Under the pieces are notes generated by a model. It did no database searches. It was not told the DNA's origin and saw nothing but the letters and a program-made list of their open reading frames with translations. From the NCBI RefSeq assembly GCF_900166595.1, contig NZ_LT745762.1, forward strand, positions 117,971 through 181,970: a stretch of 64,000 bases of DNA. Reading direction: 5' to 3'. The DNA is from Virgibacillus dokdonensis. Lineage in GTDB: Bacteria; Bacillota; Bacilli; Bacillales; Amphibacillaceae. Positions 11,801-26,550 of this stretch are shown here, one piece after another. The position numbers were made by a program, and so were the translations under genes. Each line of letters opens with the position of its first letter. The first letter of the stretch is position 1.

Positions 11801-12589
11801 TTAATTCTCCTGATGTGTTTGCATAAGAAATAAAGCCATTGAACCAGCTAGATTAACAGCTAGCTCTGCATGCCGAGTAGAAGGTCTATAGTACTGTACC
11901 TTCCCTTTCCCGTGTGCATCGCCATGTATATTTCTTAGATTACCTAAGCCATTAACAATTGATGAGCATCCACCTAATATTTTTTTGAAAATTTTAACGT
12001 CATGTTGTTCGGGAGACAGTTTTAAATCTTCAGCTACCAGTCTATATATTTCATGTAAACTAGCATTACTACTATAATCTATATTTCTTTCATCTAATAT
12101 ATGTTTCAGAACACTTTCCACAAGTGTTCTTGATATAGTTATAGCACCTTCTGGATCATTTTCTTTTCTCTCTAGAGCCTTGTTCCAATAATTAAAAATA
12201 TGTTCCGAATTAAATATCCGCAAGTTCTCATCAATCGATTCTATTAATGGTACATCTTCCTGATCCTCCAAATAATTTAACAGTTTATTAAAGTCATTCC
12301 ATATTAATTGCCTTCTTTCAGCATATGTCGGTAACTCATGCTTTATAAATTGCCAAAATTGTTGAAGGTCTCTATATTCTCTTACATAGCTTGGTAATAA
12401 CTCTTTTATTTTAGTATCTTTTAGGAAGTACCTTCTAAGTTCTACATAATGGTCATTATCAGTTGGCCCATCATTAGTACTCATGTTAATTAATAATCTT
12501 TGTAAGTATTCTGCTTTCTCAAAATCACTACCAAAATTATTTAAATTAGGATTGGCGTTTCCCCCTATTAGACCAAATATATCCTTCAT
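11801..12589 (-). CDS. Abortive infection protein, Abi_C domain
   Basis: 262 residues from the ATG at 12587-12589, preceded by AAAGGGTG (12595-12602). The carboxy-terminal domain has the Abi_C signature: ISRTLVESVLKHILDE at about 155, then GLGNLRNIHGDAHGKG near 225-240, ending with a helix of small residues. The RN...DAH cluster resembles a HEPN active site. Proteins with this domain cause phage-triggered growth arrest in several lactococcal Abi systems. The N-terminal part is helical and unassigned. It lies between two AlbA_2 genes on the same strand. Confidence 0.8.
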   Translation of the reverse strand: MKDIFGLIGGNANPNLNNFGSDFEKAEYLQRLLINMSTNDGPTDNDHYVELRRYFLKDTKIKELLPSYVREYRDLQQFWQFIKHELPTYAERRQLIWNDFNKLLNYLEDQEDVPLIESIDENLRIFNSEHIFNYWNKALERKENDPEGAITISRTLVESVLKHILDERNIDYSSNASLHEIYRLVAEDLKLSPEQHDVKIFKKILGGCSSIVNGLGNLRNIHGDAHGKGKVQYYRPSTRHAELAVNLAGSMALFLMQTHQEN

Positions 12590-12749
12590 TGAATCACCCT
12601 TTTTAAATAGTTCATTATTTACCATCGCTATTACAACGTATTAACCAGAATTTTGGGGTCGACCCATTTCCTAATAGTTCTTACTATAGAGCTGATTTAA
12701 ATTTTAGCTTTTAAAATAAAACTAGCCATTAATTAATACTCTTTTTATA

Positions 12750-13877
12750 TTAAATAGTCCTTTTTGGAATTTCATTTAATCCGGCAGCGTTACACAATAG
12801 AAGGATTGTAGATTCCAACTGACTCTCTAAGTTCTCAAAATCATTTATAACAACTTCAGGTAACAGTAAGTCTTCTTTCCTAATCATTCGCCCTCCAAAT
12901 CCATTGTTATAATAATTAATTTTTATTCCCTTGATGTTTAGTAGCGATATCATTATTACAAAAGGTCCGTTAATTTGTAACTTCTGCATATTTTCTCTAA
13001 CTCTTTCCAGCACGCCATTTAAATACTTTGATAATAAAACTATGCTTAAACTATTGTCATACGGTATAATTGTAGTATCTATAATTTCCGTTATCCCTTT
13101 TCGACTAAGGTGGTGATATCCACCCACTGTTTCTTGGTCTTTATTGTATGTACGGTCATAGCCAGTTACACCATCGATGTCAGTAATTGTTGTAATGCCA
13201 TTCGATACTAATGCCCATAAACTCAAGTCATCTGGTTTTCCTAAATTATAAAAAGGACTTCCAAAAACTAAGGAATTCATTGGTACAATATGGACACTTA
13301 TAATCCCTTGATTCTCTACTTTTAAATGACCTTCATTCGCTTTTATTTTAAATATTCGATCCAATCGGTAATCTCTTATTTTATCGCCTAGCTCTGCCAG
13401 ACCTAAGAATTTTGCTCTTATCTCGTCGATATCTAAGGGATATTTTCCTACAGAGTTTCGCCCGTAAAAACGTCTACCATCAACCACATGAGGACCGTTA
13501 TATGATTGTGGAACCCGAATTTGAATAATATAATTATTATCGAGTACTGGAATTACTTGTATTTGAAGACCTATTATTCTAGGTGTCACGAGATCTCTAA
13601 TAGTATTTTCAATTTTTTGCAATAAGTAATCTATATTTTGAACTTCAATACCTACAATACTCTTTATCACACCTTTATCTTCTTTTATACCGAATAAAAG
13701 ATCACCACCAACTGTATTTGCAAAGGATGTAATGTCTGCAGCTAATTCTTTTCGTGCTGACTTATCATTAATATTGATCTGTTCTTTATAATCAATAGAT
13801 TTACCCTCTTTCACAGAATTTTGTTGTAATTCTTTGATATCATCAAGGGTAATATCTGTAAATGATTTATTAATCAA
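12750..13877 (-). CDS. AlbA_2 (Schlafen-like) domain protein, second
   Basis: 375 residues. The N-terminal region reads EGKSIDYKEQI, ELAADITSFANTVGGDLLFGIKED and HVVDGRRFYGRNSVGKYPLD, the conserved blocks of the AlbA_2/divergent ATP-binding family. The carboxy-terminal ~220 residues are of mixed alpha/beta composition with no recognised motif. The TTG start is supported by AGGGGG at about 8 bases. It differs clearly from the AlbA_2 protein at 10557 and is the upstream gene of the pair around the Abi_C gene; three such genes side by side suggest a functional unit. Confidence 0.75.
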   Translation of the reverse strand: MINKSFTDITLDDIKELQQNSVKEGKSIDYKEQININDKSARKELAADITSFANTVGGDLLFGIKEDKGVIKSIVGIEVQNIDYLLQKIENTIRDLVTPRIIGLQIQVIPVLDNNYIIQIRVPQSYNGPHVVDGRRFYGRNSVGKYPLDIDEIRAKFLGLAELGDKIRDYRLDRIFKIKANEGHLKVENQGIISVHIVPMNSLVFGSPFYNLGKPDDLSLWALVSNGITTITDIDGVTGYDRTYNKDQETVGGYHHLSRKGITEIIDTTIIPYDNSLSIVLLSKYLNGVLERVRENMQKLQINGPFVIMISLLNIKGIKINYYNNGFGGRMIRKEDLLLPEVVINDFENLESQLESTILLLCNAAGLNEIPKRTI

Positions 13878-14067
13878 TGTAAAACTCCCCCTATAATAAA
13901 CTATTCTTCTTAATAATTTTAACCATAGCTTTGCCTTTTAAAGTACGTCTCATATCATAGATATCTATATTATATCTGAAGACAACTGAAGCCGTTTTAC
14001 CGAAGAGTGGAGACAGTTCATCTGCATCGCTTAGAGAAGGTATTGCTATAAATCCGTTGCAAGTAAT

Positions 14068-14784
14068 TCACTCCCAAAACCAAATTTCCCTCTTATCTTC
14101 TTGATATGGGGAAATAAGATCCCAAAGTGCGATTATTCTATTCCTTTTAGATTTATCTTTCTCATATTGCGCCTGTAAATAATGGAAAACAGTTCTAATT
14201 TGCTTAGATGAAACTTCATCTTTATAGTCACTCAAAAACAATAAATGCTCCGGTATAGTATCTTTTTTAAATAGTATATTCATTATATCAACATACTTTT
14301 TGTCAGGTGTTGCAAATTCCGTAAATGCCTCCTCAATACCTATTACCCTACAAGCCTTCAATAAATTTCTATATAGTCTTGAACCCACATTATTGGATAG
14401 ATATTTTTCCCTTTCTATATAATCAGTAATAATTTCGATAGATCGTTTCTCAATTAAAAAAGGGGCGGAAAGCAGGTATTGTTTTCGCTTCGGAAAACTA
14501 TCGAAGCCAAATGCGAATTTTATATATGCAGCTTCAATTTCTATTATTGAATTAAAAAAACTTAAAGCTACAAACCCTTTTCTTTGGTATTCTTCAATGA
14601 GTTCCATGTGGTCTATATAATTTTGGCGATGAGTACCGTCCTTTGCTTCAGATGCTAATTCTTTTATAATATCTATAACTTTCCTTTCCATATATACAGA
14701 ATTATTAAGCTCGCTATAACGTTCCTCTGGGCTTTTCAAGTTACAAAAGCGAATAACTTGACTCTTTAATTCATAATTGTTCAT
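14068..14784 (-). CDS. Hypothetical protein in the accessory block
   Basis: 238 residues, mostly helical and charged, starting MNNYELKSQVIRFCNL, with no motif I recognise and no membrane segment. It lies 50 bases downstream of the PD-(D/E)XK-like gene on the same strand and probably forms a two-gene unit with it. The 190 bases after its stop (13878-14067) carry a minus-strand open stretch (...NIDIYDMRRTLKGKAMVKI...) without start, which may be a small gene remnant. Confidence 0.55.
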   Translation of the reverse strand: MNNYELKSQVIRFCNLKSPEERYSELNNSVYMERKVIDIIKELASEAKDGTHRQNYIDHMELIEEYQRKGFVALSFFNSIIEIEAAYIKFAFGFDSFPKRKQYLLSAPFLIEKRSIEIITDYIEREKYLSNNVGSRLYRNLLKACRVIGIEEAFTEFATPDKKYVDIMNILFKKDTIPEHLLFLSDYKDEVSSKQIRTVFHYLQAQYEKDKSKRNRIIALWDLISPYQEDKREIWFWE

Positions 14785-14834
14785 ACTTTATATCCCCTCA
14801 TCAATACAATGTACTACCTCTTTTGACTAGAAAG

Positions 14835-15620
14835 TTATAAAAATGCCCCTAGTCTCCATTGATTCCACTGATTTTTCTTTTCTGCTCTTCCGGGCGCAAC
14901 ACAATAGTCCGAAATAACTGTATTCATTCCATCATTAGGTATAGGAAGAGTTTCCTTATTCTGATTTATGTACTTTGCAATCCATCTTCTAGCCTCTTGT
15001 ATGCCACTTAGATTATTATTGATAATAGTTTTTTTGCCATCACACACGTATTCTACTATATAGGGTTTTACCTTTTGACTTCCAGTGATGACAAAGTGAG
15101 GTTCCTTATCTTTATTTATGTGGCTAATAATTTGTTTTGGCATTCCTGAAGATTTCCTTTTTGACTTAAAATTATTAGTCACTAATAGAAATTGCTCCAC
15201 TAAAAACCTTTCAGTACTATCTGCATTTTTATTAACTTCCTTTAAGGAATTAATAATATCTATCCACCTCAACCGGATTACTTTTTTACAATTCTTCAAT
15301 AACCTTTTATGAGCAGATATCTGAGCCTCATCCAAAACTCCTCTTATTTTGAATTCGAATAGCAAATTAAAGTTTCCCCCACATATCCAAGCATCAGGGA
15401 TAGAACCTGAATTATCCTCATATTCATTGTGATTATTTATCGCTTTCTGGTATGGAGATATGCCGATAATATATTCATATTCTTTATGTTCTTGGGGACA
15501 ATACCTAGTTCTAGTAATTATGTGTAATCCACTATAATCAAACATCTCTACTTCATGGGGTATTAAATTCTCTAGGAAACTTTTTGTTAGACTATAATTA
15601 TTTAACTCCAGAATTCTCAT
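14835..15620 (-). CDS. PD-(D/E)XK-like nuclease-fold protein
   Basis: 261 residues. A probable nuclease motif is seen at about 75-95: SIPDAWICGGNFNLLFEFKI, i.e. PD, a hydrophobic strand and ExK, the layout of PD-(D/E)XK enzymes. The rest is unassigned; the carboxy end has AEKKNQWNQWRLGAF. No strong ribosome site precedes the ATG. Together with the downstream hypothetical gene it may form a small defence pair, the nuclease fold acting on DNA and the helical protein as partner. This is inference; the family is not recognised. Confidence 0.55.
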   Translation of the reverse strand: MRILELNNYSLTKSFLENLIPHEVEMFDYSGLHIITRTRYCPQEHKEYEYIIGISPYQKAINNHNEYEDNSGSIPDAWICGGNFNLLFEFKIRGVLDEAQISAHKRLLKNCKKVIRLRWIDIINSLKEVNKNADSTERFLVEQFLLVTNNFKSKRKSSGMPKQIISHINKDKEPHFVITGSQKVKPYIVEYVCDGKKTIINNNLSGIQEARRWIAKYINQNKETLPIPNDGMNTVISDYCVAPGRAEKKNQWNQWRLGAFL

Positions 15621-15726
15621 AAGAATATTTGTATAATGATCTTCTTCTTGACCTTGGTACTGAAAGATATTAATTTTACTCCCCCTCCTCTCCCTTCATC
15701 TTTAGCAAAAACACTTTTACTAATCA

Positions 15727-15806
15727 AAAATGCCAGTCATCCCCAAAAAGTTTCTTCACCAAACTTTTACTAAAAATGACTGACATTCGCTGTTATAATC
15801 TATATT
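15727..15806 (-). repeat. Terminator-containing direct repeat, copy A
   Basis: About 80 bp nearly identical to 20417-20497. On the minus strand it starts GAATATAGATTATAA, continues with a stem ATGTCAGTCAT / ATGACTGGCAT with inner AAAAGTTT / AAACTTTT pairing and ends in a T-run. It serves as terminator of the helicase transcript, while copy B serves hsdR. The EYRL-stop codons of hsdR are present in this copy although no hsdR precedes it. Confidence 0.85.
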
Positions 15807-16145
15807 CTTTTGTTAGTTCCACTAGTCAATCTATTACTGTATCTGGTGCTTCTATGTTCCAAAGATAATAACTCTTTATCTTTGCCGATATGTATAACTA
15901 TTTTAAATCCCGATTCTATACTAATAATATCACTTTGAAACTTTTCTTACAAAAAAGCATATCCTATTTAGCTAGTAATATAGTGTATAAATCAAAGTTT
16001 AATTTGGCATTGAACTCACCTTTTGTGGGTATAGGTGTTTTGATACTAGAGATTTTAAATCTAAATGCTTCTGAACACGAAATGTAGAATTATTTTTATA
16101 TTAAGTTTATAATATATTTAATCGTTAATAAGTTGTCTTATGAAT

Positions 16146-16181
16146 TGCGACAACCCAGCATTTCACAATGCTGGATTGTTG
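16146..16181 (+). terminator. Hairpin terminator
   Basis: GCGACAACCCAGCATT / AATGCTGGATTGTTGC stem with a 4-base loop, then CTTTTCC on the plus strand. Confidence 0.6.
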
Positions 16182-16324
16182 CTTTTCCTACACAATAATC
16201 CACAATATACCGAGGAAGAGGAAATTGTGAGACTTTTTGTTAAGGCTGCAAAAAAGAGTACAAGAGAAACTGGTGCGATATTCATTGGTATTAGAAAAGC
16301 AGATTAATTAAGAATGCACAACAG

Positions 16325-16354
16325 GACCCTAGATTTGTCAATATTTCTAGGGTC
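16325..16354 (+). terminator. Hairpin terminator
   Basis: GACCCTAGA / TCTAGGGTC stem followed by TTATTG, downstream of the short plus-strand fragment. Confidence 0.55.
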
Positions 16355-16489
16355 TTATTGTGCCAATTACAATTATTTCATATATAGGAAAAACTATACT
16401 ATTCTTATTAAAGTACTTATGAACAATACGTATAATTTTAAAGAGAACAGGACTTTTAAGGGAAGTTAATAAGTGTTAAAGTCACAACT

Positions 16490-19204
16490 TTATACAACTG
16501 GCTCACTAATCTTTGATGATAATAGAGAAACATCTCTTTTGCTATTTTTTCTTTCCAGATTACTCAAAACTTTATTCTCCGTTTCTGGTGTCCAGTATAT
16601 TTTTAATTCTTCCTTAGCACGAGTTATTGCTGTATAGAATATGTTGTGAGTAATCATTTCTTCAATTTCATCTGTTATAACAATTTTAACAGATTTGTAT
16701 TCCAGCCCCTGTGCTTTGTGAATAGAAACAGCATAGGCAACCTGAAATGGAACCACAGCATCAGATGATAAATCGTCATCTTCATCAGTGCTTCTATACT
16801 TATTAACAAAAAAGCGTATAATCGAATTTCCATTATCAGAACTACCTATCAGCTGAAAATCATATCCCGCTGCATCCAACTGATTTATTACTTTATCTAG
16901 TTCAATATCGAATTGTATTTTATTATTAAATATTTCTATACCTACTATTTTCCCTTTTAAGTTGTTATAAATTAAAGGAGCAAATCTTTCTGACTCATTA
17001 AACAAAATAGGATCATTGACCTTATAGGTCTGGATACCCCAGTAATAAGCATAGTTTTCATTGCTACTTTGCAAAAATCGATTAATATTGTTTATTCCAT
17101 AAAGACCATCATAATTTAAACATAGTATTATTTCATCTTCTCCAGAATGTTCAAATATCGATTCATTTAGGCTGATAGAATAATTGTTTTTGGTAATGTG
17201 TTCCAATAAATCCTCATCCATGTTCCTAACCTTATTCCACAAAGTAAGCAACTTAGAATTACTAGTTCGATAAGGCTTTGTTAACTCAAATACTGATGTC
17301 TCAGGAACAAAGGAACGAGCAATCTCAAACCAATTTCCGAAGACTATTGAGTCGATTTGATAAACATCTCCAACTAAAACTAATAATTTGAAGGATGCCT
17401 TTCTTATGACTTTAAGCATATCTAAATTACTAACTGTACTACACTCGTCAATAATCAATAAATCAAAATCTGTTTCACAATTCCTTTGTGCTATGAATTT
17501 TGCAATAGTTTTAAAAGTACAATTAGCAGCATTAACTCTCCTTTTTAAGTTATCTACTGCTGGATTAGTGTTTGCCAAATAGAGCTTCTTTTTATCATTA
17601 AAAAAATTAGAGATATGATTTATCATAGTAGATTTTCCTGTTCCAGCAGAACCGTATATAAAAGCTACTTTGGAGTTCTCAAACATTTTATTTATATAAG
17701 ATTTCTTCTCATCACAATCAATATCATAGGCGGAAGATTGCAACCAAAATTGAACAGAGTTTGAGTAATTATCTATACCAGATGAAGCTAACCCTTTAAG
17801 CTTTTGAATTATACTTTGAGTGTCCTTTTCATAACCATTTATATAAATATAATTTTTGTAATTCTCTAATTTCCTATGTTGATGCTTATAATACAATTTA
17901 CTGTTATAGGTCTCCATAAAACCTTCGATATTATCAAAACCTATAATATCGTTCTTAGGGGTATATAATAGACCATTTATTTCTGTATTATTTTTGATAA
18001 ATCTTGCAAAAATTTCATGGCCTCGATTATTTGTATCAATGCAGTCGAGTAAATCCGACAGTTTAGGATTATGATTTTTTAATGATGTATTAAACGGCAT
18101 TTTATCAAACGGTATACACCTATAATCTAGATTTAGATTTGATAATATTTCGCAATCTCCAGATTCATATTGCTGCTTTATAACTTTGTTATTTAGTCTG
18201 TAAAGTAAATATCTAATTACATTACTTCCTAAACTATTATTTTTTGCCAATTCACGGCATTTATCTAGGGTTTCAAAAAAAAGTGCGGCTTTAGATTTTT
18301 GAGTTATACGGCTTTTGGTACTCATATATTCAGTTTCTGGGGAGTCAATGACTTCAACTAAATTCAGTCCAGTTTCAGTTAGATATCTCATTAACTCGCG
18401 ATACTCAGTATGTCCACCTTGTATTTTGGGATTAATTCCAAATATTTTCGCAAAATTATTAAGTTCACAAGGGCGAATTGAAACTTCCCACCCCTCAATA
18501 ATTAGAATCGGCATTTTTTTTCCTAAAATATTTACAGTATCATCCTTTATTGAAAGTTTAACAGCATAGTTATGTGAAAGATCTAGTTTTGTAAATGCAA
18601 TAATTCTATCAAACTTACTTGCTTTATCACTTGCAACAGTTAGTGTAACTTCATAATAAACATTATAATCTACGAAAAATGGCTTTATTCTTTGGATATA
18701 GTAGCGTTCTTTATAAATGCTATTGGTTTTCTGCAAGGGTGATCGATTTATTTTCTCCGATATTTTTCCATAATACTCTTTAAGATTTGAATCTACATTA
18801 ATTGGATACTTATCTATGTTAGTTAAAACATCAAGATTGAATTCACTTTTTAGATAGTTTTTTATTTTAAGTAGATACTCATAGTACTTCAACATTAGTC
18901 TTTCTGAGTTTTCCTCATTAAGAGTATAATGAGAGGCTGTAATCTGTAAAAGCTTATGAAATTTATTCAAAAACTTTAAATTACCTTTAGATTTAACAAA
19001 TTTATTTGCCTTCCCTATATTTTCATAGCTGTTCTCAAGATCTTGTCCATTGGCGTATGCTTTTAATGAAATATGTTCAACGAAATTTCTTAGCTGCGAT
19101 AGAATATTTTGTGATAGTAACCCTCTTTCATACGAGTCAAATCTAGAAATATTTCTGCATATAACTTTATCGATATTTAAGATTTCATAATCAATACTAT
19201 TCAA
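16490..19204 (-). CDS. Large SF1 helicase with N-terminal HEPN-like motif
   Basis: 904 residues, TTG start behind AGGGGG. The last ~390 residues are a UvrD/RecD-type superfamily 1 helicase: Walker A GSAGTGKST (about 518-526), Walker B LLIIDECSTVS (about 581), motif III LVLVGDVYQIDS, motif V YAVSIHKAQGLEYKSVKIV (about 830) and motif VI FYTAITRAKEEL. The N-terminal ~140 residues are helical and contain LRNFVEHISL, an R-x4-H pattern (R39, H44) as in HEPN RNases. About 350 residues between are unassigned. It lies 53 bases downstream of the Ser/Thr kinase and must be co-transcribed. Both are bracketed by direct repeats beside the type I restriction operon. A phage-defence role with kinase-controlled nuclease/helicase activity is inferred; I know no described system with this exact pair. 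Confidence 0.8.
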   Translation of the reverse strand: MNSIDYEILNIDKVICRNISRFDSYERGLLSQNILSQLRNFVEHISLKAYANGQDLENSYENIGKANKFVKSKGNLKFLNKFHKLLQITASHYTLNEENSERLMLKYYEYLLKIKNYLKSEFNLDVLTNIDKYPINVDSNLKEYYGKISEKINRSPLQKTNSIYKERYYIQRIKPFFVDYNVYYEVTLTVASDKASKFDRIIAFTKLDLSHNYAVKLSIKDDTVNILGKKMPILIIEGWEVSIRPCELNNFAKIFGINPKIQGGHTEYRELMRYLTETGLNLVEVIDSPETEYMSTKSRITQKSKAALFFETLDKCRELAKNNSLGSNVIRYLLYRLNNKVIKQQYESGDCEILSNLNLDYRCIPFDKMPFNTSLKNHNPKLSDLLDCIDTNNRGHEIFARFIKNNTEINGLLYTPKNDIIGFDNIEGFMETYNSKLYYKHQHRKLENYKNYIYINGYEKDTQSIIQKLKGLASSGIDNYSNSVQFWLQSSAYDIDCDEKKSYINKMFENSKVAFIYGSAGTGKSTMINHISNFFNDKKKLYLANTNPAVDNLKRRVNAANCTFKTIAKFIAQRNCETDFDLLIIDECSTVSNLDMLKVIRKASFKLLVLVGDVYQIDSIVFGNWFEIARSFVPETSVFELTKPYRTSNSKLLTLWNKVRNMDEDLLEHITKNNYSISLNESIFEHSGEDEIILCLNYDGLYGINNINRFLQSSNENYAYYWGIQTYKVNDPILFNESERFAPLIYNNLKGKIVGIEIFNNKIQFDIELDKVINQLDAAGYDFQLIGSSDNGNSIIRFFVNKYRSTDEDDDLSSDAVVPFQVAYAVSIHKAQGLEYKSVKIVITDEIEEMITHNIFYTAITRAKEELKIYWTPETENKVLSNLERKNSKRDVSLLSSKISEPVV

Positions 19205-19257
19205 AAAAATCCCCCTAATTTATTATCATATATTGTGATAAACTAAAATAGCGATTA

Positions 19258-20394
19258 CTAGAACGGCAAATCATCATCATCAAATGTATAATTTATCTTA
19301 ACTGTATTTAATCTCGATTTGATATTGTTGATTACAACCTTCCGTTGATAAGGCGTAAACCTACTTAACATTTCAATGAAATCGGTTATAACCTCTACAT
19401 TAATAGTCGGCCTTATAGAATAATTAAAACTATTATTAACGAAAGACCGTATTAGAGGTGCGTTGTCTTGTATAATATATTCCAAGGCATTTGCTTCAAC
19501 GATTTTCAAGAGTTCTCTCATTATTTTATCTTCATCATCTACGGGATTAAAATCTGAAGTGAAGTGATTTATAATATTCATCAGATTATCTGCGAATGCA
19601 TTATAAGTTTGTTTGTCCTCATCTAAAAACATTTCAGTAATTAATTGACTTCCATAAACTTCTCTTAATATGGAACTAAAGTCGTTATATCTCTCTGTCC
19701 TAGAAACCTTCATCATGTTCATTATAATAGTCTTATACTTAAAGCTTTCAATCTCATCACCTAATAATTGTTCGAAAAGGCTTCCAATATAAAAAATTTC
19801 TGTTTGATGATCGTACTTTGAACCTGTTTGTATTTCTTCAGGGTGAATACTATATGGCCAGTTTAAAACTATACTATTCCCCTCAGTTTCATTAGCCTCT
19901 AACTTCTTACCAAAGCCGAAGTCAATCACTTTCACATTATTATTTTCATCTATTAATATATTTGACGATTTTATATCTCGATGTAATACTTTTATCTTTT
20001 CCAAATAAGCGAAGGCTTCTACCACTTCCAGAAATATCTTTTCCCAAGGTTTATGAGAACCAACTGGAACATATTCATTAATTGGAATTCCATCAATATA
20101 TTCCATTTCAATATATCCAGTTTTATGTTCAGGGTATAAATAATAATTATAAATCCTCACAATGTTGGGATGTGAAACTTTAAAAAGTATTTTTATTTCA
20201 TTAATAAATCTTTCAAATCCATCATCTGTATCATTTTCAAGAACTGGATTATACTTCTTTATAGCAAATAGAGTATCCGTTAATTTCTCTTTAAATAATT
20301 CTGTCTGTCCTGTACCCCCTTTTCCTAAGTTTCTTACATATTCCAATGACTTACTTTTATCAAATTCAATCACTTTTCCTTCCTTTAGCAACAT
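19258..20394 (-). CDS. Ser/Thr protein kinase with SSB-like C-terminal tail
   Basis: 378 residues from the ATG at 20392-20394, preceded by AAAGGGTGGAG; the frame opens 13 codons earlier without ribosome site. A Hanks-type kinase domain fills residues 18-270: glycine loop GKGGTGQ (24-30), AIKK (Lys46), HRDIKSSNIL (138-147, catalytic Asp140), DFG (158-160) and the PEE segment. All catalytic residues are present, so it should be active. There is no transmembrane or PASTA region, so it is cytosolic. The helical C-terminal region ends FDDDDLPF-stop, practically the acidic tip of bacterial SSB (Bacillus SsbA ends DDDLPF), which recruits repair and replication proteins. It is the first gene of the pair with the helicase. 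Confidence 0.9.
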   Translation of the reverse strand: MLLKEGKVIEFDKSKSLEYVRNLGKGGTGQTELFKEKLTDTLFAIKKYNPVLENDTDDGFERFINEIKILFKVSHPNIVRIYNYYLYPEHKTGYIEMEYIDGIPINEYVPVGSHKPWEKIFLEVVEAFAYLEKIKVLHRDIKSSNILIDENNNVKVIDFGFGKKLEANETEGNSIVLNWPYSIHPEEIQTGSKYDHQTEIFYIGSLFEQLLGDEIESFKYKTIIMNMMKVSRTERYNDFSSILREVYGSQLITEMFLDEDKQTYNAFADNLMNIINHFTSDFNPVDDEDKIMRELLKIVEANALEYIIQDNAPLIRSFVNNSFNYSIRPTINVEVITDFIEMLSRFTPYQRKVVINNIKSRLNTVKINYTFDDDDLPF

Positions 20395-20416
20395 AAACTC
20401 CACCCTTTCTAATATA

Positions 20417-20497
20417 AAAATGCCAGCCATCATAAAAGTTCTTTTGCTTAACTTTTATTAGAAATGACTGACATTCGCTGTTATAATCTATATTCAC
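20417..20497 (-). repeat. Terminator-containing direct repeat, copy B
   Basis: Nearly identical to 15727-15806. It overlaps the last codons of hsdR (EYRL-stop) and forms its transcription terminator: ATGTCAGTCAT / ATGGCTGGCAT arms with inner AAAAGTT / AACTTTT pairing and T-run. The kinase gene begins only about 25 bases further on, so any kinase promoter must lie in this repeat or the kinase is reached by read-through. Confidence 0.85.
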
Positions 20498-23400
20498 CTT
20501 TTGATTCTGCAGCTTGCTGTATATCCCAATCCCTTACTTCCGTATTTTCCGCCATCAATTCTGCTTGATGCATAACAGTATCCAAAGCTTTTTTCGCCTG
20601 TTCTGGTGGATAATCATACTTTTTCAAGAGCCTCTTAATAATTCGTCGCATTCCAGCTCGTGCGCTCTTTCGAACATGCCAATCAATAGTCATGTTACGT
20701 CTTACTGCCTGTGTAAGTTCGTTTGCTATTTTTAGTAATACTTCATCTTCCATTAACTCTTTTACAATGGATTCAGATGTTAAAGCATCATAGAAGGCAA
20801 TTTCATCATCGTTTAAGCCTAAGTCTTCTTCCTCTTGTCGTGCCTTTTTCATATCATTTGCCATTTGGATTAATTCTTCCATTACTTCAGCATTTGTAAT
20901 TGCTTGGTTTTTGTATTTATTTAAGGACTGTTTTAGTTTTTCCGAGTATTTCTTAGATTTAACGAGGTTGCGTTTCTCCATCGTTTTGATGTTGCCTTCT
21001 AATAGCTTTTTAAGCATTTCAACTGCTAAGTTTTTATGCTCGTATGTTCGAACCTCTTCTAAGAACTCTTCCGATAAAATGGATACATCTGGATGTTTCA
21101 GTCCCATTACTTCAAATACATCTACCGCTTCTTCAGAAATAATAGAGCGCTCCAGTAACTGACTAACTCGTGCTTCTACTTCCTTTTTCGATTTACGTTT
21201 CGGTTGTTTTTCTTGAAGTTTATTAAGACTTGCTTTAACTGCTTTAAAATAGCTAACTTCCAGTGCTACAGCTTTACCTTCATCAGTCGCAGCACATAAC
21301 GAATGGGCCTTGGCTAATTCTGTTGCTGTCTGTTTAAATTCCTTTTGTTCCTTGTCATTCTTACCGAAGATGACGTTCATACCACCAGTAATGGCACGAA
21401 TTCGTCCTGATTGTGATGTACTCATATAAGCCGAGTAATCATAACCGTGCATCATATTTTGCAAGATTTCCAATTTCTCTTTCATTACAGCAACAGCAGC
21501 TGAAGTATCAATACCTGTAGTTTCCTTATCACTGTCTGTATATTCATTTAACGCCTTTTTCAAGCTTTCTAATATTCCTATATAGTCAACAACTACCCCA
21601 CCAGATTTATCTTTGAATACACGGTTAACCCTTGCAATCGCCTGCATTAAATTGTGGCCTTGCATTGGTTTATCGATATACATCGTATGCATGGAAGGAA
21701 CATCGAATCCGGTTAGCCACATATCACGAACAATAACGATTTTTAATTCATCACTGTTATCTTTCATTCGTTTAGCTAATAAGTCTCGTCGTTTTTTTCC
21801 GCCAATGTGCGCTTGTAAAGCGTCCTCATCTCCTGCGCTACCAGTCATAACTACTTTTATTTTCCCTTTGTCTTCGTCATCAGAATGCCAATCTGGTCGA
21901 AGTTTAACAATTTCATCGTATAGTGCAACACAAATACGGCGACTCATACAGACAACCATCGCTTTCCCATCAATCGTTTTAGCTTTTTCTTCGTAATGGT
22001 TGACGATATCTTTTGCTAACTTCTGAATTCGACTAGGAGAACCAACAATTGCTTCAAGCCTAGACCATTTAGATTTATATTTTTCACGGGTCGATTCTTC
22101 TTGATCTTCCGTAATCTCTTCAAATTCTTCATCAATTCTGGCTAATTCCTCTTCATTGGCTTCTAAACGAATTATCCGATTTTCATAATAAATTCGAACT
22201 GTCGCTTCATCTTCCACTGCTCGTGTCATATCATATATATCAATATAATTACCAAAAACAGCTGGTGTTGATTTATCCTCTAGTTCAATCGGTGTTCCAG
22301 TAAAACCAATAAAGGAAGCGTTCGGAAGTGCATCACGCAAATATTTTGCATAACCATATTTCACATCGCCTGTTTTTGTATTTGTCTTGGCTGAAAATCC
22401 ATATTGACTACGGTGGGCCTCATCCGCAATAATAATGACATTTTTACGATCAGTTAGGACAGGCACTTCTCCTTCTTCTTCCGGCTTAAACTTTTGGATA
22501 GTCGTAAAAATGATCCCACCTGATTGTCGTTCGTTTAGAAGATCGTACAATCCGTTTATCTCTTTAGATTTTTCATTAGCTTGTTGTTTTTTCTGCTCGT
22601 CAGTTAGCTTCCGAATATCTGCTTGTTTCGGAGCTTGTCTTAATATATCCTGTGACTTAGAGAAAGTAGAAAACAGCTGATCATCTAAATCATTTCGGTC
22701 TGTAATTACGACAATGGTTGGATTATTTAGTTGATTGATAAGCTGTCCTGTATAGAAAACCATTGAAAAACTTTTACCGGATCCTTGAGTATGCCAAATA
22801 ACACCGATTTTACGATCTCCATTTTCACTTGTTGCTGTTTTTGTATGTTCCACAGCCTTTTTCACAGCAAAATATTGGTGGTAGGCAGCCATAATTTTTG
22901 CAATCGTCTTCTTATCCCCGATTTTCTTCCCATTTTCATCTCGTTCCTCTTCGTGCGATTCTTGGAAAAGAATAAAGTTTTGGATAATATCAATTAATCG
23001 TTCTTTTGAGAGCATCCCTCGCAACATGACCTCATATTGCGGAACTTCTAAAGGTTCAATCGTTTCGCCATCCACAGAACGCCAATTCATAAAACGTTCC
23101 TGATTAGCTGTAATGGTTCCAGCTTTAGCATTTATCCCATCCGATAAAATGCAAAATGCATTGTAGTAGAATAAGGAAGGGATATCTCGCTTATACGTTT
23201 GAATCTGTGCATAGGCATTATCAATACTTACGTTTTCATCAGAAGCGGATTTTAGCTCGATGACAACAAAAGGAATACCATTAATGAATAGGATTAAATC
23301 TGGGCGACGCTCTTCTTTTTCAACAATAGTAAATTGATTGACTACAAGAAATTCATTATTAGATGGTTTTTCAAAGTCTATTAAGAAAGCTTTCATTGAG

Positions 23401-23732
23401 CGATTTTGACCATCTTTGTGGAATGATACATCAATTCCCTCTGTTATCAATTTGTGAAAATAGCGGTTATTTTCTTCTAGGCTTGGACTGTTAAACGCAA
23501 TAATTTGGCGAAACGCTTCTTCTAAAGCCTCATGTGGTAAATGCCTATTATTTTTAAATAATGCATCTTTAACACGGTTTTCTAAGATAACAGTTCTATA
23601 ATCTTTCCGTTCCGGTCTTTCCCCATCAGAACTAATTTCGGGTCCAAAGATGTATTCATAGTCAAGCTCTTGAAGAATCTCAATGGCTGCTTCTTCTAGC
23701 TTATCTTCCGTAAAATTTTCTAGGAAACTCAT
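20481..23732 (-). CDS. hsdR: Type I restriction enzyme, R subunit
   Basis: 1083 residues, full length. The N-terminal nuclease has [20 protein letters not shown] (PD..D...ExK type, about 145-175). The SF2 translocase follows: [18 protein letters not shown] (Walker A), [13 protein letters not shown] (DEAH box), [10 protein letters not shown] (motif III), then motif [17 protein letters not shown]. The C-terminal helical region binds the methylase core. With HsdM and HsdS it would translocate DNA and cut unmodified sites. ATG follows AAAGGAG at 8 bases, 30 bases after hsdS, as last gene of the operon. No lesion seen. Confidence 0.95.
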
Positions 23733-23765
23733 TTACCTCACTCCTTTCACAATAAGATAATATTT

Positions 23766-25043
23766 TTAACTCTTACTTTCTAAAACCTCACCCTCTAATA
23801 AGACACGAATTTCCCCAGACATTAATTTTGGAAGAAGAATATCTCTTACTGATGTTAAATGCTTACTTTCTAATATATTGTTATAGATTAATCCTGAGAT
23901 ATTATCAATAAACTTTATAAAGTCTCGTTCTATATTCTTATTTGGCACTAATATTTTATGTTTTTTTACATGGGTGATTTTTATGCTAGGTTGGACAGAT
24001 CCAATATTATAAGAAACCAATTCATTCTTGATATTTTGCAAATACTGATACAAGTAAAGATAAGAAATATTTTTCGTTCTTAAAGCTACTACATTCTGTG
24101 CAATACACCCTATATCTCCATAAAAAAGCTTCAATTCCCCAATGCTACCAACCGTAGACAATAGAATATCCCCTTCTTTTGGATGTCCATTTCTAAACCA
24201 CGAATCATAGGTCTTCTTATCTACGAATTTAGTACAATTATCATAGTTTACGATTCGATTTTTTCCAGACAAAGCCCTTACATCAATAATAGGGTAACAA
24301 GTTACATCTTTGCTTAAAGGTGGCGTTTTACCTCTATTATCAATTACATCCACTAATTCACCTAGTTGACTTACATCCCAATCCTTTGGAATCATCCCTA
24401 ACTCACTTTTGATCATTTCTCCACCACTGGATTTATATGGCTCACCATTCTCATTCGGAAACTCAAAATCCACAAACCAATGTTTAAATAAAGATTGCGC
24501 CATTTCTTCCAACTTTTCGTTGATTTTATTATTTGTTTTTGTTTTTTCGTCTAAGGTTGAGAGAATGTTTGCTATCACTCTTTGTTCTTTATCACTAGGA
24601 AAAGGTAACTTAATTGTCTCTAAACCCTTTTTGTTAATAGATGCAAAAACAGTACCTGTTTCTCTACTAGTTATTTCTCCAACATAGCTTTTTAATAAAT
24701 AGTATAAAAACTCATTATTACCATTAAGCATTTTAAGACTTGCTAATCCACGGCCTATACATAAGTCAGTAGTTGCTACATTCACGTCTCCAACCGGAGC
24801 GCGAACACTCATTAAAATATCACCTTTATCGGCAAGCCTCTTTGGATCAGTACACCAAGTATCTATATCATGATATTTATCACCGAATGTTTTTCGTCCC
24901 TGCATAAAAGGTATTCCTAAACCTTCATTGTTATATGAATCTGACTTCGGAGATTGTCCCATTGTAATACTGGCTTTTAACTTTAACTCAACCACATCCC
25001 AATTTTCAGGGATTAAACCTACCTCAGATTTTTTAAAACTCAT
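23766..25043 (-). CDS. hsdS: Type I restriction enzyme, specificity subunit
   Basis: 425 residues from the ATG at 25043 (GGGGGG ribosome site 7 bases upstream). Two target-recognition domains each begin with the family hallmark: [14 protein letters not shown] at the N-terminus and [18 protein letters not shown] near residue 215. Conserved helical spacers follow them: [22 protein letters not shown] in the middle and [19 protein letters not shown] at the end. It overlaps hsdM by about 11 bases, implying coupled translation. The bipartite target cannot be read from sequence. No inverted second hsdS copy is present, so no phase-variable shuffling is evident. Confidence 0.95.
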
Positions 25044-26550
25044 AGCCAATCCCCCCTAGATTCTTCTTAATCTCTTCTTCCAATCGGTGGGATTTATCAA
25101 ATAACTCTCTTAATTCTCCAGTAAGAGTCTCCATTTTTTCTTCAAACGGAATACCATCATCTTCTATATCACCCAATCCAACATAACGGCCGGGAGTCAA
25201 AACATATTCATTCTCACGAACATCTGCTAAAGTTGCTGATTTACAGAAACCTTTAATATCCTTATATTTTCCATCTGGTCTTCGCCAATTCCGATAGGTT
25301 CCTGCGATTTTTTTAATATCCTCTTCCGTTAATTCACGTAAACGACGGTCAACCATTTGTCCCATGTTCCGAGCATCAATAAATAAAATTTCCTTTTCAC
25401 GGCTTTGGTACGTAGGATGATTTTTTTTATTGCGGTTCAATATCCATAAAGAAACTGGAATTCCTGTAGAGTAAAATAATTTCTCAGGCAATGCAACAAT
25501 GGCATCAACTAAATCGGCTTCCAATAAGTTCTTACGTATTTCTCCTTCATTAGATGTATTGGAACTTAACGAACCATTTGCTAAGACAATTCCAGCTGTA
25601 CCATTTGGGGCAAGGTGATAAATCATATGTTGTAACCATGCATAGTTGGCGTTACCATTTGGTGGTGTTCCATATTTCCATCTCACATCATCAACTAATT
25701 CATTTCCTCCCCAGTCACTGATATTGAAAGGAGGATTTGCTAAGATGTAGTCAGCCTTTAGCGTTTTATGCAAGTCATTATGGAATGTATCCGCATGATG
25801 TTCACCGATATTCCCTTCAAGGCCACGAATAGCAAGATTCATCTTAGCAAGTTTCCAAGTAGTTGAGTTCAACTCTTGACCATATATAGACAAGTTTTCG
25901 ATTTTTCCTTGTCGGCGTTCTACGAATTTTTCACTTTGTACAAACATACCGCCACTACCACAGCAAGGGTCATATATACGACCTTCATATGGCTCAATCA
26001 TTTCAACCAATGTTTTTACAACACTTTGTGGTGTATAGAACTCTCCACCACCTTTACCCTCTGCACTTGCAAATTTACCTAAGAAATATTCATAAATACG
26101 ACCAAGCAAATCCTTTTCTTCTTTACTGTGTAGTTTAATCGTTGAAATTAAATCAATGAGTTCACCTAAACGACGTTTATCAAGTTCTGGTCGTGCATAG
26201 CGCTTATCTAATACCCCTCGTAATGATGGGTTTTCTTTCTCAATTGCAATCATCGCTTCATCAATATATTGTCCAATTTTGGGATCCTTTGCACGGTCTT
26301 TAATGAAGTCCCAACGCGCTTCTTTTGGAACCCAGAAGATATTTTCGTATGTATATTCATCACGATCTTCTTCAAAGCCATCTCCTTCTTCAACTAACTC
26401 GTTATATTTTGTTTCAAATTTATCTGAAATATATTTCAGGAAAATTAATCCTAATGCAACGTGTTTATACTCAGATGCATCCATACTTCCACGTAATTTA
26501 TCCGCTGCTTTCCAAAGTGTTTCCTCAAATCCAATCTTTGCTGTTTCCAT
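25033..26550 (-). CDS. hsdM: Type I restriction enzyme, DNA methyltransferase subunit
   Basis: 505 residues. N-terminal HsdM helical domain ([34 protein letters not shown]) and the gamma-class N6-adenine methyltransferase core: AdoMet motif [14 protein letters not shown] (about 190-202), catalytic NPPF ([12 protein letters not shown], about 270) and [18 protein letters not shown]. It methylates adenine at the HsdS target to protect host DNA. ATG follows AAGGAG, 16 bases downstream of the XRE regulator stop and overlapping hsdS. Confidence 0.95.

What the first reader, a model, noticed from the sequence alone, without database searches (positions are those of the whole stretch)
19258..19290. 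Kinase ends in an SSB-like acidic tip (DDDDLPF)
Seen directly in the DNA: the last codons read FDDDDLPF-stop. Known: SSB proteins end in DDDIPF/DDDLPF and this tip docks PriA, RecG, RecO, RecQ, RecJ and others; the terminal Pro-Phe is essential. Inference: the kinase mimics SSB to dock on SSB-binding proteins, to phosphorylate them or to detect phage factors that bind SSB. I know of no described kinase with this tail.
Basis: partly seen in the sequence, partly recalled or inferred. Interest (0 to 1): 0.85.

Follow-up and report, generated by a model that had tools for sequence, protein, structure and literature searches.

The report
Kinase family with SSB-type tail
A bacterial protein kinase, found near anti-virus genes, ends in the same short tail by which the cell's single-strand-DNA-binding protein calls in repair and replication proteins; the tail is kept across a wide, apparently undescribed kinase family, which suggests these kinases are aimed at the replication and repair machinery.

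Summary
The kinase ORF (19258-20433, minus strand) ends FDDDDLPF-stop. Of 348 distinct listed homologues, 341 end in Pro-Phe after acidic residues; the other 7 are cut off upstream of the tail. The stretch before the tip varies in sequence and length, and AlphaFold2 gives the tip no secondary structure and lowered confidence. The catalytic residues are intact. The more distant kinases read, including a 933W-type phage Stk, lack the tail.

The residue before Pro-Phe agrees with a host SSB in 9 of 9 genomes (Leu, Val or Ile; permutation p 0.014, relatedness ignored). In the window's genome the tail pattern falls on only two genes, SSB and this kinase. The gene is patchy and usually single: 3 of 8 other complete bacterial loci have a defence gene nearby, and 3 viral contigs carry it. 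The adjacent PDC-S53 helicase is not a regular partner.

Best reading: a Ser/Thr kinase that docks by an SSB-tip mimic on SSB-tip receptors (PriA, RecG, RecQ, RecO, RecJ). Docking is supported by sequence only; substrates and an anti-phage role are inference. No paper on such a kinase turned up in the searches made.

The parts
19258..20433 (-). Ser/Thr protein kinase gene (391 aa from the first ATG; likely start ATG 20394, 378 aa)
   Evidence: Pfam PF00069 124.5 bits
19681..20340 (-). Kinase domain (residues 32-251) with K59, E79, HRD 151-153, N158, D171; invariant S187 in the activation segment (candidate autophosphorylation site, inference)
   Evidence: Pfam; invariant columns
19306..19650 (-). 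C-terminal mostly helical domain (residues 262-376), confidently modelled; the Pfam, PADLOC and NCBIfam matches of this protein lie mainly in the kinase domain
19261..19284 (-). SSB-type tip FDDDDLPF (residues 384-391) after a short variable spacer

Best explanation
An accessory, usually single-gene Ser/Thr kinase family whose C-terminal domain carries a copy of the SSB tip. The tip (acidic residues, then Leu/Ile/Val, Pro, Phe and the free carboxylate) enters the pocket by which SSB-interacting proteins of the host hold SSB (PriA, RecG, RecQ, RecO, RecJ and others), and so places the kinase on the replication-repair hub. There it phosphorylates the docked protein or a neighbour, stopping or redirecting replication, most likely as a response to phage or to fork collapse. 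SHOWN: catalytic residues, family-wide tip, agreement of the tip with the host SSB in the genomes compared, variable spacer, defence or prophage location of several members. INFERRED: binding to the pockets, kinase activity, the substrates, the trigger, the anti-phage outcome.
For: Tip in 341 of 348 homologues, the other 7 truncated. P390 and F391 are among 30 invariant columns of 56 hand-picked full-length members down to about 31% identity, beside the catalytic residues. Position -5 is Asp in 76 of 85 and -6 in 63 of 85 non-redundant proteins, while positions -7 to -25 are variable. Residue -3 agrees with a host SSB in 9 of 9 genomes (p 0.014), and the sister kinases L038 (LPF) and L039 (IPF) differ as SSBs of their hosts do. 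Leu in 113 of 119 Pro-Phe enders of the first set, Ile in 106 of 114 of the second; E. coli SSB ends DDDIPF, own SSB DDDLPF. The last 10-11 residues have no secondary structure and lowered confidence (pLDDT 69 for residues 381-390 and 43 for 391; 58 for the last ten) against 92-97 in the domain. Defence genes in the window and at 3 of 8 other complete bacterial loci; three members in viral contigs. One member, P0225, carries an N-terminal DnaG-type zinc finger.
Against: No binding, kinase or phage assay exists. Only 2 of the 9 host pairs are not Leu-Leu, so the host agreement rests on few independent events; relatedness is not removed. One host (G300) has a second SSB ending DDDIPW, and second SSBs of two hosts lack the tip. 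SSBs of the Pseudomonadota hosts could not be searched here. The spacer before an 8-residue tip is about 3-15 residues, mostly shorter than the 11-20 residues that E. coli SSB needs between its core and its tip (PMC10164576). The tail's pLDDT is lowered, not very low. Pattern scans of IMG/VR found 3 contigs only, and plasmids and phages gave no match at E 1e-20. Five of the eight other complete bacterial loci showed no convincing defence gene among the neighbours scanned.
Confidence: 0.63

Rival explanations
1. The tail is a decoy or sensor rather than an address: it competes with SSB for the receptors, or binds the DNA-binding face of free SSB (the SSB tip is reported to touch its own DNA-binding site), so that the kinase senses how much SSB is tied up on single-stranded DNA.
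For: Same sequence evidence as the main reading. A weak contact of the E. coli SSB tail with its own DNA-binding site is cited in PMC5928155 (passages), and phage SSBs stimulate several defence systems (PMC13381803, passages).
Against: The catalytic residues are kept together with the tail, so pure competition would leave the kinase without a role.
Confidence: 0.14
2. The tail is used in cis: it folds back on the kinase as a regulatory C-tail, as the hydrophobic C-terminus of AGC kinases does (recalled).
For: A C-terminal Phe-containing tail on a kinase has such precedents (recalled, not tested). The modelled confidence of the tail is lowered but not very low.
Against: No secondary structure and lowered pLDDT for the tail in both models. 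Spacer length and sequence vary, and residue -3 agrees with the host SSB, neither of which cis docking predicts.
Confidence: 0.11
3. The tip is a ClpXP degron: LPF at the C-terminus of SsbA targets it and GFP to ClpXP in some Streptococcus mutans strains.
For: PMC5143411 (abstract and passages): LPF is sufficient there.
Against: Same paper: not recognised in E. coli, S. gordonii, S. sanguinis or three of the S. mutans strains. Most of the Pseudomonadota-like kinases end IPF, and the acidic residues are kept although LPF alone suffices as that degron.
Confidence: 0.06
4. Kinase and the adjacent PDC-S53 helicase are a two-gene system, split Mokosh-like, and the tail docks on that helicase.
For: Same strand, 53 bases apart; helicase matches PDC-S53 with 1368 bits and both genes hit MkoA weakly.
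Against: No BLASTP hit (E 1e-4) to the helicase among the ORFs shown in 12 other kinase loci, three of which are short, 3-9.4 kb. PDC-S53 relatives on two annotated plasmids have no kinase annotated beside them. The tail is conserved without the helicase.
Confidence: 0.04

Closest known systems
SSB C-terminal tip (SSB-Ct; E. coli DDDIPF, DDDLPF in the window's genome)
   Same: Acidic run, hydrophobic -3, Pro-Phe with free carboxylate, after a variable spacer; same last six residues as the own SSB
   Different: Carried by a kinase without the OB fold of SSB; spacer mostly shorter than SSB's reported minimum
PADLOC PD-T4-6, MADS MAD6 and PknB/Stk1-type kinases
   Same: Kinase domain matches
   Different: Far below the curated NCBIfam cut-offs of MAD6 and PknB (77.8 of 460; 92.4 of 450 bits). 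Matches lie mainly in the kinase domain and none reaches the tip
Phage Stk of the 933W/phi24B type
   Same: Phage-borne Ser/Thr kinase; 23% identity to family member P0122 over part of its length
   Different: Ends RLLKDN, no tip; an SPbeta kinase ends AVSKIL
KKP kinase-kinase-phosphatase module
   Same: Prophage kinases linked to phage defence; PfkA overexpression gave DnaG among putative substrates (PMC11341870, passages)
   Different: Two kinases with CSD/FHA domains and a PP2C phosphatase; no phosphatase or second kinase in the ten window proteins scanned
Stk2 of staphylococci
   Same: Anti-phage Ser/Thr kinase (known here from a reference title, and recall)
   Different: Tail not compared here

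Membership tests
SSB (PF00436) | OB-fold ssDNA-binding domain | tested here: not met
   Pfam scan of the kinase gives kinase families only
SSB (PF00436) | C-terminal acidic tip ending Pro-Phe | tested here: met
Ser/Thr protein kinase (PF00069) | Kinase fold with Lys, Glu, HRD, Asn and DFG-Asp residues | tested here: met
   124.5 bits against cut-off 31.7; K59, E79, HRD, N158, D171 invariant in 56 sequences
Ser/Thr protein kinase (PF00069) | Phosphotransfer to a protein | not testable with these tools
   No assay
MADS protein kinase MAD6 (NF047741) | Score over curated cut-off 460 bits | tested here: not met
   77.8 bits
PASTA kinase PknB/Stk1 (NF033483) | Score over curated cut-off 450 bits | tested here: not met
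   92.4 bits
Mokosh type I | MkoA with kinase and SF1 helicase in one protein (recalled) | tested here: not met
   Separate genes; MkoA model matches the kinase with 69.6 and the helicase with 18.1 bits, each in part
KKP | Neighbouring PP2C phosphatase and second kinase | tested here: not met
   Neither is among the ten window proteins scanned, which include both adjacent genes
PD-T4-6 | Model match over whole length | tested here: inconclusive
   Many PD-T4-6 models match, mainly over the kinase domain, best 115.5 bits; PADLOC gives no curated cut-off in this tool
SSB-interactome docking ligand | Binds SSB-tip pockets, dependent on the terminal Phe | not testable with these tools
   Needs a binding assay or complex prediction

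The most novel reading that the evidence does not exclude
A widespread kinase family that enters the host's SSB interactome by molecular mimicry and phosphorylates fork-restart and recombination proteins as an immune (or prophage-exclusion) response, its tip re-tuned to each host's SSB: a phosphorylation-based immune arm addressed by the SSB code.
Probability: 0.4. Interest if true: 0.87.

Novelty: new variant of a known kind. Interest (0 to 1): 0.73.

Why it matters
SSB tips are the address by which repair and restart proteins find single-stranded DNA. A kinase that copies the address would be a direct, so far undescribed link between Ser/Thr phosphorylation and replication forks, and a cheap way for accessory genes to reach a dozen important proteins at once. 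It also gives a test that can be run at once: remove one Phe. The C-terminal D-D-x-P-F tag on non-SSB proteins may serve as a search key for further fork-directed accessory proteins.

Full report
WHAT IS THERE. The minus-strand ORF 19258-20433 encodes a Ser/Thr kinase (PF00069, 124.5 bits) that ends YTFDDDDLPF-stop. The stop codon is 19258-19260, the tip 19261-19284. Homologues begin near residue 14, and a GGGTGGAG stands just before that ATG (20394), so the protein is probably 378 aa. Lys59, Glu79, HRD151-153, Asn158 and Asp171 are invariant in 56 hand-picked full-length members down to about 31% identity, and so are the last two residues, Pro390 and Phe391; only 30 columns are invariant in that alignment.

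THE TAIL IS A FAMILY TRAIT. Three protein searches were run, with the window kinase, a viral-contig member (L036) and the zinc-finger member P0225; the best 120 hits of each are listed. Of 348 distinct proteins, 341 end in Pro-Phe with at least two acidic residues at -9 to -4. The 7 others are 217-352 aa and their alignments to full-length members stop at or before residue 349 of 377-385, so they are fragments or broken copies. In 85 members under 60% identity (pre-filtered for Pro-Phe), -5 is Asp in 76 and -6 in 63, while -7 to -25 have entropies above 3 bits. The spacer between the last helix motif and an 8-residue tip is 3-15 residues, median 9, in the 83 of 85 where the motif was found. 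That is the picture of a short recognition motif on a spacer. AlphaFold2 gives 92-97 for the C-terminal domain from residue 271 on, 69 for residues 381-390 and 43 for residue 391; a model of the domain alone gives 58 for the last ten. Neither assigns secondary structure to the tip.

CONTROLS. Of 18 distant kinases in other loci 17 could be read, and of 10 from two genomes, which may partly repeat them, 7; none ends in Pro-Phe. Nor do the phi24B Stk and an SPbeta kinase. In the own 4.6-Mb genome the tail pattern marks only SSB and the kinase as genes. In 16 genomes 38 sites were found, against 18 for the reversed pattern. Of the 28 read, 11 are SSB, 7 this kinase, 2 other gene-sized open frames (L106, 149 aa; L096, 184 codons) and 8 ends of open stretches under 60 aa, one of which looks like an SSB remnant.

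THE TIP AGREES WITH THE HOST. Kinase and SSB could be compared in 9 genomes (for eight, for the own). Six hosts have an SSB ending DDDLPF and a kinase ending LPF. A seventh (G300) has SSBs DDDIPW and DDDLPF and a kinase DDDLPF. G389 has two SSBs ending IDVPF and a kinase ending VEVPF. G141 has an SSB ending EDIPF and a kinase ending PEIPF. Second SSBs of G869 and G917 lack the tip. So 9 of 9 agree with a host SSB; shuffling the kinases gives this in 1.4%, ignoring relatedness. On a quick tree built without the tail, parsimony needs 16 changes of residue -3; the kinases of G300 and G141 are sisters with full support and differ as SSBs of their hosts do. On a larger scale, Leu is found in 113 of 119 Pro-Phe enders of the first set, whose 16 sources' organism names are all Bacillota by my reading, and Ile in 106 of 114 Pro-Phe enders (120 listed) of the second, where 15 of the 16 organism names are Pseudomonadota and one is Chrysiogenes. 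E. coli SSB ends DDDIPF. SSBs of those Pseudomonadota hosts were not read here.

WHAT THE TIP DOES IN SSB. In PMC10164576 (passages) the terminal Phe sits in a hydrophobic pocket, basic residues hold the carboxylate and the Asp residues, loss of the Phe abolishes or greatly weakens binding, Pro-to-Ser weakens it, and E. coli SSB needs a spacer of at least 11-20 residues. In B. subtilis the SSB C-terminus gathers at least 12 proteins, among them PriA, RecG, RecQ, DnaE, SbcC, RarA, RecJ and RecO (PMC3000357, abstract). The kinase keeps the features that those pockets read; its spacer is mostly shorter than SSB's minimum.

SURROUNDINGS. In the window the kinase lies between hsdR of a type I restriction system (HsdR, HsdS, HsdM by Pfam) and a PDC-S53 helicase, with an AbiJ-like gene and an AlbA-domain gene further on. 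Elsewhere it is mostly a single gene: no PDC-S53 relative showed among the ORFs of 12 other loci, and PDC-S53 relatives on two annotated plasmids stand without an annotated kinase. Some neighbours at each of 8 complete bacterial loci were scanned with PADLOC. Three show defence genes: L040 a type I HsdR about 6 kb away, L044 a UvrD helicase and a DruE-like helicase next to the kinase, L039 a PDC-S06 ATPase. L037 has an IS21 element and DUF3800; L038, L042 and L043 show nothing, and L041 only a weak CARF match of 24.6 bits. Three viral contigs carry it: L034 beside the terminase, L035 about 5.7 kb past the endolysin gene, L036 in a region with phage connector and primase genes. It is patchy: 4 of 398, 2 of 299 and 6 of 398 genomes, the own counted each time.

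MECHANISM. Most likely the tip is an address that brings an active kinase to proteins that carry an SSB pocket. Shown: catalytic residues, tip, its conservation, its agreement with host SSB, its spacer. Inferred: activity, binding, substrates, trigger, outcome. [quoted passage not shown] and overexpression of a prophage kinase, PfkA of KKP, gave DnaG among its putative substrates (PMC11341870, passages). The member P0225 has a DnaG-type zinc finger at its N-terminus, a second hint towards the fork.

RIVALS. Sensor or decoy, cis tail, ClpXP degron and helicase partner are set out in the rival list. The degron is real for LPF in some S. mutans strains but not in E. coli, two other streptococci or three S. 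mutans strains (PMC5143411, abstract and passages), and cannot explain IPF in most Pseudomonadota-like members or the kept acidic residues.

NOVELTY. Paper searches on SSB tip with kinase or defence (of, 25 of 113 papers were listed) showed no paper whose title or abstract start describes a kinase with an SSB tip; the library holds openly licensed PMC papers only. For the four members scanned, no NCBIfam model reached its cut-off. Kinases and SSB tips are both known; the combination appears new.

Noticed in passing
P0225, 491 aa: A member of the kinase family with an N-terminal DnaG-type CHC2 zinc finger (dnaG model 65.6 bits) and the tail DDEIPF; the only one with that Pfam domain in the lists read.
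   Followed up: partly
L106 (G973) and L096 (G389), at the pattern site: A 149-aa protein ending EDDFPF and a 184-codon open frame ending FFDDVPF: gene-sized ends of this type that were not identified as SSB or this kinase.
   Followed up: no
L036:18925-20646: The phage primase/helicase on the same viral contig ends QDGDPPF, similar to the NDYPPF end of the HK620 phage SSB described in PMC5928155.
   Followed up: no
L045 (G1004:C91), 404-1186: A kinase copy that stops at 260 aa, before the C-terminal domain and tail; described only.
   Followed up: no
window 16490-19204: PDC-S53 helicase (1368 bits); relatives on Sporosarcina and Lactiplantibacillus plasmids have no kinase annotated beside them, and one lies on an unannotated Phocaeicola plasmid.
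   Followed up: partly
window 11801-26550: AbiJ-like gene (Abi_C domain), AlbA/Schlafen-domain gene, PDC-S53 helicase and type I restriction genes: the window holds a defence island.
   Followed up: partly
G300 SSB, L048: An SSB that ends DDDIPW, Trp in place of the terminal Phe, beside a second SSB ending DDDLPF.
   Followed up: no
PMC5143411 passages: An Abi C family protein of the S. mutans pan-genome is reported to end in LPF, perhaps another accessory protein with an SSB-like end.
   Followed up: no
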